Shown: positions 4,252 through 33,391 of the stretch, one piece after another
Layout of the letters: each line of letters opens with the position of its first letter
Position numbering within the stretch: the first letter of the stretch is position 1
NCBI GenBank assembly: GCA_017624675.1
Contig: JAGAMO010000005.1
Span: 1 to 36,841, forward strand
Direction: 5' to 3'
Source of the DNA: Clostridia bacterium
GTDB taxonomy: Bacteria > Bacillota > Clostridia > Oscillospirales > Acutalibacteraceae
Length of the DNA: 36,841 nt
Notes under the pieces: generated by a model
Told to the model about the DNA's origin: nothing
The model's input: the letters and a program-made list of their open reading frames with translations, nothing else
Database searches by the model: none
Position numbers and translations under genes: made by a program

Positions 4252-4453
4252 TATAATGATTATAGTTTGCCAAAACGCTGAAAAGCGCTTCGGCAAGCCA
4301 CTTTTCAAGTGGCTTTGGCAAAATTGAATTTTAAAATTCAATTTTGCACAACACTCATTGCAATGGATATGGACAAATTTCAAAAGAAATTTGTTACAAA
4401 ATCAAAGATTTTGTGTCGAAACAAGAATGTTTCGACTAATCATAACCATTATT
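4252..4453 (+). repeat. 202-bp multi-hairpin repeat, copy 1
   Basis: Begins TATAATGATTATAG and ends CTAATCATAACCATTAT. Between these lie tandem hairpins: H1 near 4269-4294, H2 4295-4315, H3 4318-4347, a CATTGCAATG palindrome, H5 CAAATTTC/GAAATTTG, H6 CAAAATC/GATTTTG, and H7 GTCGAAAC/GTTTCGAC. It fills the gap between spoIIIAH and asp23. Its H1 end is 20 bp from the asp23 start codon. It shares about 90% identity with copy 3 by eye. No protein is supported inside it. Confidence 0.93.
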
Positions 4454-15462: not shown

Positions 15463-15477
15463 ACATTTACCAAAACA

Positions 15478-15645
15478 TAAGGTCTTCGGTAGCTTGAGAC
15501 CTCAAGCTTTAAACTGGAATAGAGGTGCAATTCCTCTGCGAACTCGTCGCCGTAATTATATGAGGTTTTTCAATATGTCACTGCGTTTGCGGGAAGGCGA
15601 AAAACCGAAAGTCTTTTACCCCGAGACTTACATATATAAGTCGGA
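15478..15645 (+). ncRNA. Cobalamin riboswitch aptamer
   Basis: The cobalamin-family core is visible: AGAGGTGCAATTCCTCT (15521-15537), followed by the CGAACTCGTCGCCGTAA region. Then GTCACTGCGTTTGCGGGAAG (15577-15596) leads into GCG, the counterpart of the conserved CCACTG...GGGAAGGC segment, and CCGAGACTTACA near 15620. The 3' domain is divergent from the textbook consensus, so edges are approximate. It lies between its own promoter and a terminator in front of B12-uptake-type genes. AdoCbl versus methyl/hydroxocobalamin preference is not decided. Confidence 0.88.
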
Positions 15646-15702
15646 ATACTCGCCGTAGACTGTCAGTACAAAGATGTCACGAGTAATTGACAGTGTACAA
15701 AA

Positions 15703-17812: not shown

Positions 17813-18014
17813 TATAATGGGTATGGTTAGTCGAAACATTCTTGTTTCGACACAAAATCTTTGATTTTGCAACAAATTTCTTTTGAAATTTGTCCATATC
17901 CATTGCAATGAGTGTTGTGCAAAATTGAATTCGTAAATTCAATTTTGCCAAAGCCACTCGAAAAGTGGCTTGTCGAATCGCTTTTCAGCGTTTCGACAAA
18001 CTACAATCATTATA
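17813..18014 (-). repeat. 202-bp multi-hairpin repeat, copy 2
   Basis: Reverse orientation to copy 1 and exactly the same length. Read on the minus strand it starts TATAATGATTGTAGTTTG and ends CTAACCATACCCATTATA. All hairpins are intact, with H3 arms of AAAATTGAATT/AATTCAATTTT and a CATTGCAATG palindrome, placing it in the same subgroup as copy 1. Its H1 end lies 46 bp before the response-regulator start. TATAAT at 17813-17818 could serve as a -10 reading through it, but no good -35 is visible. Confidence 0.93.
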
Positions 18015-18059: not shown

Positions 18060-18746
18060 ATGCAATACAAAATTTTAATTGTTGACGATGATGAGAATAT
18101 TTGCGAACTTTTAAATCTCTATTTAAAAAAGGATGGTTTTGATACAGTTCTTGCATACAACGGTATGCAGGCTGTTGAATATGCTGAAAAATTTGCTCCC
18201 GACCTTATTTTGCTTGATATAATGCTGCCTCAGCTCGACGGTTGGCAAGTGTGTAGAGAAATAAGAAAAAAATCAGAAGTTCCTATAATCATGCTAACCG
18301 CAAAGGGTGAAACCTTTGACAAAATTTTAGGTTTAGAACTAGGCGCCGATGATTACATTACCAAACCTTTTGACACAAAAGAGGTCGTAGCAAGAATAAA
18401 GGCAGTTCTTAGAAGAACAAGTGACAAAGAAAATCAACAAAACATCAAGGAAGTTCGTTTTGAAAAGCTTATAATTAATCTTACAAATTACGAGCTTACT
18501 GTTAATGACAAAAGAATTGACACTCCTCCAAAGGAATTAGAACTTTTATACCATCTTGCAAGTAATCCAAACCGCGTTTACACGCGTGACCAGCTGCTTG
18601 ATGAGGTATGGGGATTTGATTACTACGGTGATTCAAGAACAGTTGACGTTCATGTTAAAAGACTTAGGGAAAAGCTTGAAAATGTTTCACAAGAATGGTC
18701 CTTAAAAACCGTATGGGGCGTTGGATATAAGTTTGAGGTTAAATAA
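18060..18746 (+). CDS. OmpR/PhoB-family response regulator
   Basis: A 228-residue two-component regulator. The receiver domain (residues 1-115) has the acidic pocket VDDDE (9-12) and phosphoacceptor Asp53 in LLDIMLPQLDGW. MLTAKGE and DDYITKPFD supply the conserved Thr and Lys. The winged-helix DNA-binding domain (about 130-228) has RVYTRDQLLDEVWGFDYYGD and ends VWGVGYKFEVK. CGGAGG (18048-18053) precedes ATG 18060. Its last stop base overlaps the kinase ATG (TAATG). With the kinase and HtrA next to it, a CssR-like secretion/envelope-stress role is likely by analogy. Confidence 0.95.
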   Translation: MQYKILIVDDDENICELLNLYLKKDGFDTVLAYNGMQAVEYAEKFAPDLILLDIMLPQLDGWQVCREIRKKSEVPIIMLTAKGETFDKILGLELGADDYITKPFDTKEVVARIKAVLRRTSDKENQQNIKEVRFEKLIINLTNYELTVNDKRIDTPPKELELLYHLASNPNRVYTRDQLLDEVWGFDYYGDSRTVDVHVKRLREKLENVSQEWSLKTVWGVGYKFEVK

Positions 18747-31649: not shown

Positions 31650-31678
31650 ATTCTATGAAGATTTTTTTGCTATCATAC
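31650..31678 (-). promoter_or_regulatory. Probable sigma-E promoter of yqfC-yqfD
   Basis: On the minus strand, GTATGAT (31672-31678), exactly 14 bases, CATAGAAT (31650-31657). The -10 is one base from the sigma-E consensus CATACAAT. It starts 3 bp from the end of repeat copy 3. Confidence 0.65.
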
Positions 31679-31681
31679 ATA

Positions 31682-31883
31682 TATAATGATTGTAGTTTGT
31701 CGAAACGCTGAAAAGTGCTTCGACAAGCCACTTTACAAGTGGCTTCGGCAAAATCAGATTGTACAATTTGATTTTGCACAACATTCATTTCAATGGATAT
31801 GGACAAATTTCAAAAGAAATTTGTTGCAAAATCAAAGATTTTGTGTCGAAACAAGAATGTTTCGACTAATCATAACCATTATA
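31682..31883 (+). repeat. 202-bp multi-hairpin repeat, copy 3
   Basis: Best-ordered copy. Hairpins: H1 31699-31724, H2 31725-31745, H3 31748-31777, weak H4 31786-31795, H5 31804-31823, H6 31827-31843, H7 31845-31866. Terminal repeats are TATAATGATTGTAGTTTG and CTAATCATAACCATTATA. It lies between divergent yqfC and ylbJ, with H1 facing yqfC. With copy 4 it forms an inverted pair around ylbJ. H3 arms AAAATCAGATT/AATTTGATTTT place it in the same subgroup as copy 4. Confidence 0.95.
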
Positions 31884-31898
31884 ACAAGGGTGATTAAA

Positions 31899-32951
31899 AT
31901 GAAAATTAAAAAACGGATTTTTTCCTTTTTAATGTGTATTTTGTTGTTGTCTTTTGCTGTTTTAATGATTATTAAACCCGAAATTTGCAAAAAAAGTGTT
32001 GCAAGTGCAATTTTACTTTGCGGTCAAGTTATAATACCATCTCTCTTCCCTTTTGGAGTTTGTGTTCTCTTTTTAATGAAATCGGGAATATGTGAAAATT
32101 TAGAGTTTCTATCCCCTATCACTCTAAAAATCTCAGGTCTTTCGGCATATCCTTTTTTTATTTTTCTTTTCTCAATGCTTGGCGGTTACCCCATTGGCGC
32201 AAAGCTTTTAAACGAAGCAGTTGAAAGTGAAATCTTAACGCAAAAACAAGCAGAAAAAATGCTGTGTTTTTGTGTTAATGCAGGTCCCGCTTTCATAGTA
32301 TCAGCTGTAGGAAACGCCGTTTTAAAAAACACCAACATCGGTTATATCCTACTAATTTCTCATATTTTGTCTTCACTTTCAATTTGCCGTTTTTCAGGTA
32401 AAATCACTGCCTGGCCACAAAAAACAAATACTTATTTATCCGCATCAGATAATTTTGTTTCCTCGGCATCGTCCTCAGCAAATGCTGTTACAGGCATTTG
32501 TTTTTATGTTATACTTTTTTCAGCGGTCACAGGATATATAGATTATTTTTCAAAAGAGTTTCCAATATTAAAGTCATTTCTATATATAACAGAGATTACT
32601 GGTGCAGTCACTAAAACCCGTAATGTATATATTATTTCCTTTTTACTGGCCTTTTCGGGAATTTGTATTTGGTGTCAAATATTTTCGGTAGCTAAAGCAA
32701 TAAAAATTAATGTCTTTAAGTTTGCTTTTTTTAGAATTTTTCATGGATTTTTAAGCAGTTTGATTACTTTTTTAATACTTAAAATTTACCCGCTTGAAAC
32801 CGAGACTTTTTCTAATATCTCAAGTTTTCCCACGAAAGTATTTGTTTCGGGCAAAGCATTGGGAATTTCACTTTTCATTTTGGGAATTGTTTTCATAATT
32901 TCTCTCTCAAACCGACAAAATTCTCAAAAAATGCTTGAAGAATTATTATAG
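31899..32951 (+). CDS. YlbJ-like sporulation integral membrane protein
   Basis: A 350-residue polytopic membrane protein of about eight segments. PSLFPFGVCVLF, the GGYPIGAKLLNEAVESE block and CFCVNAGPAFIVSAVGNAVL are the nucleoside-recognition-like motifs of the YlbJ family, sigma-E-dependent and needed for spore cortex formation in Bacillus. Family members are usually nearer 400 residues. ATG 31899 has AAGGG (31886-31890); the frame upstream is repeat sequence. It is flanked on both sides by inverted copies of the 202-bp repeat. Confidence 0.87.
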   Translation: MKIKKRIFSFLMCILLLSFAVLMIIKPEICKKSVASAILLCGQVIIPSLFPFGVCVLFLMKSGICENLEFLSPITLKISGLSAYPFFIFLFSMLGGYPIGAKLLNEAVESEILTQKQAEKMLCFCVNAGPAFIVSAVGNAVLKNTNIGYILLISHILSSLSICRFSGKITAWPQKTNTYLSASDNFVSSASSSANAVTGICFYVILFSAVTGYIDYFSKEFPILKSFLYITEITGAVTKTRNVYIISFLLAFSGICIWCQIFSVAKAIKINVFKFAFFRIFHGFLSSLITFLILKIYPLETETFSNISSFPTKVFVSGKALGISLFILGIVFIISLSNRQNSQKMLEELL

Positions 32952-32961
32952 ACTGTGGTAT

Positions 32962-33163
32962 CATAATGATAATGATTAGTCGAAACATTCTTGTTTCGAC
33001 ACAAAATCTTTGATTTTGTAACTAATTTCTCTTGAAATTTGTTCATATCCATTGAAATGAATGTTGTGCAAAATCAAATGCCACAATTTGATTTTGCCGA
33101 AGCCACTTGTAAAGTGGCTTGTCGAAGCGCTTTTTAGCGTTTCGACAAACTACAATCATTATA
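32962..33163 (-). repeat. 202-bp multi-hairpin repeat, copy 4
   Basis: Opposite in orientation to copy 3 and the same length. On the minus strand it starts TATAATGATTGTAGTTTG and ends CTAATCATTATCATTATG. H6 and H7 are identical to the other copies. H5 has two changes that weaken its stem. H3 arms AAAATCAAAT/ATTTGATTTT. The H1 end is 15 bp from the next start codon. An upstream TTGAAG (32935-32940)-N18-TATCAT (32959-32964) with TGG is a possible promoter reading through it. Confidence 0.93.
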
Positions 33164-33178
33164 CAAACGGTGATTAAA

Positions 33179-33391
33179 ATGAAAAAGATGTTTGATAAAA
33201 ATGTTATAAAAAAATGCGAATATTGTCTTTTCGGCACCCCTATAGGCGGCGAAGGCGAAATAATCTGCAAAAAACGTGGAATCGTCTATCGTGATGACCT
33301 TTGCCGAAAATATAAATACGACCCGTTAAAACGCGAACCAAAAAAGCAAACAATTTCAGACAATTATTCCCCTGAGGATTTCAAACTTTAA
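33179..33391 (+). CDS. Small Cys-containing protein of unknown function
   Basis: A 70-residue soluble protein with CEYC near the N-terminus, then Cys in IICKKRG and Cys in DDLCRKYKYDPLKREP. The pattern CxxC...C...C followed by KYDPLKR suggests a four-Cys metal site, probably zinc. Similar small proteins of unknown role occur in Clostridia as far as I recall; I cannot name a family. ATG 33179 follows ACGGTGATT. It is preceded by repeat copy 4 and followed by a strong terminator. Confidence 0.75.
   Translation: MKKMFDKNVIKKCEYCLFGTPIGGEGEIICKKRGIVYRDDLCRKYKYDPLKREPKKQTISDNYSPEDFKL

What the first reader, a model, noticed from the sequence alone, without database searches (positions are those of the whole stretch)
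31682..31883. A 202-bp repeat made of tandem hairpins, four copies of identical length, with compensatory stem changes
Copies at 4252-4453, 17813-18014, 31682-31883 and 32962-33163 are each exactly 202 bp and about 90% alike by eye. Nearly the whole element is a string of short palindromes. Ends form an imperfect inverted repeat: 20 of 25 positions match between TATAATGATTGTAGTTTG plus GTCGAAAC and the complement of the other end. Stem H3 has T-A and G-C at pairs 6 and 7 in copies 1 and 2, but C-G and A-T in copies 3 and 4. Stem H1 pair 2 is C-G in copy 1 and T-A in the others. H6 and H7 are unchanged in all four. Paired changes mean the fold is being kept. Inverted ends next to TA suggest a MITE mobilised in trans. 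I do not recognise a named family (not ERIC, BOX or REP by size and layout).
Basis: partly seen in the sequence, partly recalled or inferred. Interest (0 to 1): 0.85.

Follow-up and report, generated by a model that had tools for sequence, protein, structure and literature searches.

The report
Mobile twin-cloverleaf DNA repeat
The four repeats are copies of a small, gene-less mobile DNA element that folds into two cloverleaf shapes, inserts at AT dinucleotides, often in front of genes, and occurs in many gut Clostridia; what moves it is not known.

Summary
The own genome holds 14 near-complete copies. Eighteen other genomes of the genus and one of another family match by DNA, some only over short stretches. 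A covariance model finds 11 of 295 genomes of the order, in 8 families.

The fold is two adjacent cloverleaf domains. Of 55 modelled pairs, 38 show kept double changes (0 of 500 shuffles as high). Empty sites in related species show one AT where filled sites have AT on both sides. The dinucleotide between the two domains is AT in 0 of 104 copies, the outer ones in 103 of 104 at each end. One-domain and one-hairpin members exist. Six dispersed copies in one genome are 98-99% alike.

A subset lies on -10 boxes with -35-like sequences 17 bp upstream. Five transposase families were tested; none is shared as an intact gene by all copy-rich genomes examined. I file it as a new, structurally unusual MITE-like family with an unknown mobiliser. 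The window's own copies have no clean empty site.

The parts
4252..4453 (+). Copy 1. Core AATG..CATT 4255-4450 between AT 4253-4254 and AT 4451-4452; domain D1 4255-4359, spacer GC 4360-4361, domain D2 4362-4450
   Evidence: boundaries by analogy with empty sites of other copies; its own empty-site alignments are gapped and ambiguous
17813..18014 (-). Copy 2 (minus strand). D1 17907-18011, spacer 17905-17906, D2 17816-17904; 45 bp upstream of a response-regulator gene (18060-18746)
   Evidence: no empty site found
31682..31883 (+). Copy 3. AT 31683-31684, D1 31685-31789, spacer TC 31790-31791, D2 31792-31880, AT 31881-31882
   Evidence: no empty site found
32962..33163 (-). Copy 4 (minus strand). 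AT 32963-32964, D2 32965-33053, spacer 33054-33055, D1 33056-33160, AT 33161-33162
   Evidence: no empty site found
32935..32964 (+). Promoter-like pair TTGAAG - 18 bp - TATCAT reading into copy 4; the last two bases of the -10-like box are the AT at the insertion point
   Evidence: sequence; prediction only
31671..31676 (+). TATCAT -10-like box just upstream of copy 3; the leader TATCATACA..GGTGATTAAAATGAA is nearly shared with the gene behind copy 4
   Evidence: sequence; prediction only
31899..32951 (+). ORF of 350 aa starting 15 bp after copy 3; no Pfam match
33179..33391 (+). ORF of 70 aa starting 15 bp after copy 4; no Pfam match, leader almost the same as that of the ORF behind copy 3

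Best explanation
It is a non-autonomous, MITE-like mobile element. SHOWN: the unit begins AATG and ends CATT, lies between two AT dinucleotides, and holds one to three hairpins. The common form is a fused pair of three-hairpin units (D1, D2) whose inner junction CATT-NN-AATG never has AT as NN. The fold is conserved. Where an empty site is known, it has one AT and the filled site has AT on both sides. INFERRED: an enzyme supplied in trans recognises the ends, probably as folded or extruded DNA hairpins, and exchanges at AT. It either duplicates a 2-bp AT target or inserts between A and T; the data cannot separate these. It favours TT-AT-AA, and a new unit can land on the end of an older one; a fused pair whose middle AT has changed would then move as one. 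INFERRED in part: because TTATAA resembles a -10 box, a subset of copies lands on promoters and keeps or rebuilds the -10 box (TTATAATG), so the gene behind would still be transcribed, with the element as a structured leader.
For: Mobility: junction-spanning empty-site alignments for 6 of the 14 own copies; continuous through the AT for four (L010, L011, L013, L014) and for two of three aligned loci at L008; gapped for copy 1. Nearest relative in the same genome for 34 of 74 copies against 4.6 by shuffling, maximum 13 (15 of 104 copies had no genome label and 15 more were alone in theirs). Six dispersed copies 98.4-99.2% identical, gaps excluded. Fold: 38 of 55 pairs with double changes, 96.9% of cells paired, 0 of 500 shuffles as high; 101 tree-based Watson-Crick double changes against 1-5 with slid partners; nine members found by the covariance model and read: eight fold as 3+3 hairpins, one as 3+1. 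AT rule: inner AT 0/104, outer AT 103/104 at each end; among the 53 copies not found through a pattern that demands the left AT, left 52/53, right 52/53, inner 0/53. Modules. Promoter placement: -35-like at exactly 17 bp in 8 of 114 ends reading towards a gene, at most 3 of 114 at any other offset; in 15 of 114 reconstructed empty sites the -10 box of a promoter-like pair spans the AT, other 6-nt bins 0-5; 3 of 70 in ends not reading towards a gene.
Against: No autonomous partner or shared intact transposase was found: Y1 absent in G000 and G023, IS630 DDE_3 in 13 of 13, rve in 9 of 13 including G000, IS110 above cut-off in 7 of 8; serine recombinase absent in G004 and G023, fragment only in G046 and G353. 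None of the window's own copies has a clean empty site. At L013 some aligned loci have CT, GT or TT in place of AT (L196, L204, L233, L234), and L210 has GT at L008, so the ancestral AT is not universal. No variable target duplication exists that would prove duplication independently. G-U exceeds A-C by 65 to 42, so some RNA-level selection is possible. The promoter signal is modest: in the control class other offsets (11, 25) reach mean likelihood ratios of 3.1 and 2.9 against 4.7 at offset 17 in the test class.
Confidence: 0.66

Rival explanations
1. The element acts mainly as an RNA: transcribed from promoters at its ends, the two cloverleaves are a structured leader or small RNA, and the fold is kept for that RNA function.
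For: Strong fold on both strands; promoter-like boxes at one end in a subset; 86 of 95 copies have at least one neighbouring gene whose start faces the element, only 9 lie between convergent genes; slight G-U excess 65:42.
Against: No clear orientation preference between co-oriented genes (23 same, 32 opposite), and promoter-like ends occur at both D1 and D2, so either strand would be transcribed. A transcript starting about 7 nt after a terminal -10 box (general knowledge) would lack the 5' side of the closing stem that is nevertheless conserved. G-U and A-C steps are of the same order. No Rfam match above threshold on the element.
Confidence: 0.15
2. The paired changes are made by mutation, not selection: template switching at cruciforms perfects hairpins, so covariation needs no function.
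For: Loops occur in inverted versions (AAA and TTT, ATA and TAT in the fifth hairpin; GAAA and TTTC in the first), seen by eye in the alignment. Double changes (101) are about as common as single G-U plus A-C steps (107).
Against: The closing stems, whose partners lie 90-96 columns apart, also covary: columns 125/217 have 29 double-change cells, 126/216 19, 11/107 14. The layout persists in members of other families found only by the covariance model.
Confidence: 0.12
3. A relative of IS200/IS605 or REP/RAYT systems, mobilised by a Y1 transposase acting on single-stranded hairpins.
For: Inverted pairs of hairpin units resemble REPINs; 10 of 13 genomes tested have a Y1 match.
Against: The own genome with 14 copies has no Y1 match, nor has G023. 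Y1 matches are as common without the element: 5 of 6 genomes without a DNA match against 5 of 7 with one.
Confidence: 0.08

Closest known systems
Correia elements / NEMIS of Neisseria
   Same: Short, gene-less, inverted ends, strong folding, mostly just upstream of genes, promoter sequences in the element (passages of PMC10969869; part 1 of 3 of the text of PMC2229807).
   Different: Listed with a TA motif at the termini and a target duplication (that the duplication is TA is recalled). Here the shared dinucleotide is AT. Two separately closed cloverleaf domains and the never-AT inner junction are not described in what I read.
REPINs (paired REP sequences)
   Same: Two inverted hairpin units dispersed in a genome as a pair (abstracts in listing; otherwise recalled).
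   Different: Units here have up to three hairpins plus a closing stem; no Y1/RAYT match in the own genome.
RUP of Streptococcus pneumoniae
   Same: Small inverted-repeat element proposed to be moved by a transposase in trans.
   Different: RUP is linked to IS630-Spn1; no IS630-type DDE_3 match in 13 of 13 genomes here.

Membership tests
MITE (bacterial, general) | Under about 500 bp, no coding capacity, inverted ends | tested here: met
   196-bp core in the window copies, inverted ends 18-20 of 25; no ORF of 90 aa or more lies within a copy, three begin inside copies 1, 3 and 4 and run out
MITE (bacterial, general) | Clean insertion relative to empty sites, with target duplication | tested here: met
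   One AT in empty sites, AT on both sides when filled, at 5 of 14 own copies; duplication versus insertion between A and T not separable
MITE (bacterial, general) | Identifiable autonomous parent sharing the ends | tested here: inconclusive
   No gene-bearing element with these ends in end scans of 6 and 3 genomes (the first listing was cut) and the unpaired ends that I read
Correia/NEMIS | TA target duplication (recalled) | tested here: not met
   The L011 target CGCCATCG has no TA; the dinucleotide shared at the junctions is AT
REP/REPIN | Cognate Y1 (RAYT) transposase in the genome | tested here: not met
   0 matches in G000, a 96.7% complete assembly
Any Rfam family | Covariance-model match | tested here: not met
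   None on the element at the gathering threshold. In five loci at E up to 1, two weak matches touch elements (L054, L071), at 27 and 23 bits against gathering scores of 88 and 100
ERIC, BOX and other named repeats | Consensus similarity | not tested
   No library of named bacterial repeats was at hand

The most novel reading that the evidence does not exclude
A mobile-element class whose substrate is a folded DNA cloverleaf: each unit is recognised by its fold plus AATG/CATT ends and exchanged at an AT dinucleotide by an enzyme outside the five families tested, possibly a universal host recombinase. A dinucleotide change at an inner junction locks neighbouring units into a new compound element, and targeting of -10 boxes lets it insert in front of genes while rebuilding the promoter.
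Probability: 0.27. Interest if true: 0.82.

Novelty: new variant of a known kind. Interest (0 to 1): 0.62.

Why it matters
It gives a natural set of over a hundred copies in which a fold is kept in eight families of one bacterial order while hairpin sequences change, so fold-dependent mobility becomes testable. The rule of AT outside and never AT inside predicts how compound elements are built and is simple to test. Placement on -10 boxes suggests how a small element can enter promoter regions without silencing the gene.

Tried and rejected
Linked gene: clustering ORFs around 194 loci gave no common neighbour; the largest cluster covers 15 loci and looks ABC-ATPase-like by eye. Terminator role: only 9 of 95 copies lie between convergent genes. 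Gene interruption: no ORF of 90 aa or more spans a copy in 95, but that test can hardly see a broken gene. Frames stay open across joined flanks in 7 of 102. Two that I read (L097, L128) look like chance frames; the script then failed. Of the rest, L175 probably does break an alpha/beta-hydrolase gene, because the piece beyond the element lacks the first 21 profile positions. The two pieces at L159 belong to different families; L187 and L193 give no family at the element; L023 was not tested. Variable target duplications: none in 102 flank pairs. Phage or plasmid origin: no match with copy 3 in plasmids or phages, none with the pattern in viral contigs. Transposase families PF01797, PF00239, PF13358, PF00665, PF01548: none shared as an intact gene by all copy-rich genomes examined. 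Rows dropped: of 123 unique near-complete sequences, 19 were left out of the alignment (score of 100 bits or less, or length outside 195-216; several are reverse-strand hits of the same place). L284 and L287 were first read at wrong coordinates and reread.

Full report
WHAT IS THERE. The four 202-bp repeats are real. Copies 2 and 4 are on the minus strand; oriented identities are 88.1-93.6%, and the inverted ends match at 18-20 of 25 positions. The own genome (1.58 Mb, 41 contigs) has 17 matches: 14 near-complete copies, one partial match that is a three-hairpin member with a variant right end (L010/L015), one arm of a one-hairpin member (L016), and one reverse-strand self-match.

FOLD. Copy 3 folds into two adjacent closed domains, each with a closing stem and three hairpins. 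From 289 profile hits in 194 loci I kept 123 unique near-complete sequences and aligned 104. The predicted consensus is the same two-domain layout, with 38 of 55 pairs showing double changes. With controls, 96.9% of cells pair and 0 of 500 shuffles reach any of the five measures; sliding partners by 1-3 columns drops pairing to 33-52%. On a tree I count 101 Watson-Crick double changes against 1-5 with slid partners. The long-range closing stems covary too (columns 125/217, 126/216, 11/107), which hairpin-perfecting mutation does not readily explain; the inner part of the D2 closing stem is the weakest helix, 85.2% paired. Single steps to G-U and to A-C number 65 and 42. Under strand-symmetric mutation an RNA fold should favour G-U strongly and a DNA fold should be even, so the data lean to DNA with room for some RNA selection.

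DISTRIBUTION. By DNA, 20 of 60 genomes match, own included: 19 of 37 in the genus and 1 of 23 others; several matches are short. A 201-position covariance model found 11 of 295 genomes in the order, 8 genera in 8 families, one a single-contig genome; at most 8 candidates per genome were scored, so copy counts are lower bounds. I read nine of these members, covering seven of the eight families (the eighth, f11, is in the alignment through G046): L282-L288 and L290 fold as 3+3 hairpins, L289 (the single-contig genome) as 3+1.

MOBILITY. The flanks of the 14 own copies, joined with one AT, were searched in 61 genomes of the genus; only 4 candidates per genome were scored and the listing was cut. 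Alignment to 50 fetched loci gave junction-spanning matches for 6 copies. L010, L011, L013 and L014 have loci continuous through the AT. At L008 two of three loci are continuous at the AT (one with a short gap 3 nt later) and one has GT. Copy 1 (L005) is gapped and ambiguous. At L013 some loci have CT, GT or TT instead of AT. At L011 the target is CGCC-AT-CG in four aligned loci from three places, which excludes a TA target there. No copy shows a variable duplication. Nearest relatives are in the same genome for 34 of 74 copies against 4.6 by shuffling. Six dispersed copies in one MAG are 98.4-99.2% identical.

MODULES AND THE AT RULE. One-hairpin members: L080, L247, L254 and L255 have clear ends, L016 and L078 variant ends, L071 and L074 an unclear right end. 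L084 has two hairpins. D1 alone with proper ends: L030, L066 and L295; D2 alone: L292. In the fused pair the inner dinucleotide is GC 68, TC 18, AC 6, GA 5, CG 3, GT 3, CC 1, AT 0 of 104; the outer ones are AT in 103 of 104 at each end. The pattern demanded the left AT for 51 of these; the other 53 give 52 left, 52 right and 0 inner. The nine distant members also have no AT inside (read by eye). Units also sit on each other's ends, sharing AT. I infer that exchange happens at AT and that losing it in the middle fuses two units.

PLACEMENT. Of 95 copies with usable context, 31 lie between divergent genes, 55 between co-oriented genes and 9 between convergent genes; no ORF spans a copy, though L175 probably interrupts a hydrolase gene. 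Flanks favour TT before and AA after. For ends reading through the element towards a gene, a 5-of-6 match to TTGACA lies exactly 17 bp before the terminal TATAAT in 8 of 114, at most 3 of 114 at other offsets, and in 1 of 70 ends not reading towards a gene. In reconstructed empty sites a promoter-like pair has its -10 box on the AT in 15 of 114 ends, and within 12 nt upstream in 9 more (24 distinct ends); in the other class 3 of 70. The resemblance of TTATAA to a -10 box contributes, but the -35 spacing is independent of it. The signal is modest and computed only. Copies 3 and 4 of the window lie in two nearly identical leaders at different AT positions and in opposite orientation, which looks like separate insertions of sister copies.

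MOBILISER. Not found. Y1, IS630 DDE_3, rve and IS110 are missing from several copy-rich genomes; serine recombinases are missing or fragmentary in G004, G023, G046 and G353. Incomplete assemblies weaken these negatives. End scans showed no gene-bearing element with these ends, but the first listing was cut and only unpaired ends of interest were read.

LITERATURE. I saw search listings, passages of PMC10969869, part 1 of 3 of the text of PMC2229807 and passages of PMC2267715. Within these no two-cloverleaf element and no AT rule was described. That is not a claim that none is in print. REPIN and RAYT details beyond abstracts are recalled.

VERDICT. A new, structurally unusual family of MITE-like elements. 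Mobility and a conserved fold are well supported; the enzyme, the DNA-versus-RNA question and the promoter effect are open.

Noticed in passing
window 15470-15671 (+): Cobalamin riboswitch, 75.4 bits.
   Followed up: no
window 31671-31913 and 32959-33193: Two ORFs without similarity to each other by eye (350 aa and 70 aa) share an almost identical promoter-leader-start sequence, each hit by a sister copy of the element in opposite orientation.
   Followed up: partly
L136, L133, L127, L142, L118, L138, L156, L146, L160: These metagenome contigs end about 140 nt inside an element, as expected when near-identical copies break assembly.
   Followed up: no
L283, L286, L292, L300: In one lineage a hairpin of D2 is replaced by a longer GGTTGGCTCC..GGAGCCAA-type hairpin, suggesting hairpins are exchangeable modules.
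   Followed up: no
L246 3001-3207 (G000:C35:3292): A strongly diverged member with the same layout and ends in the own genome, 207 bp.
   Followed up: partly
alignment A2, loops of the first and fifth hairpins: Loops occur in reverse-complement versions (GAAA/TTTC, AAA/TTT, ATA/TAT), hinting at loop inversion by template switching (by eye).
   Followed up: no
L175 833-1045: A copy that probably interrupts an alpha/beta-hydrolase gene: the ORF beyond it matches PF07859 only from profile position 22.
   Followed up: partly
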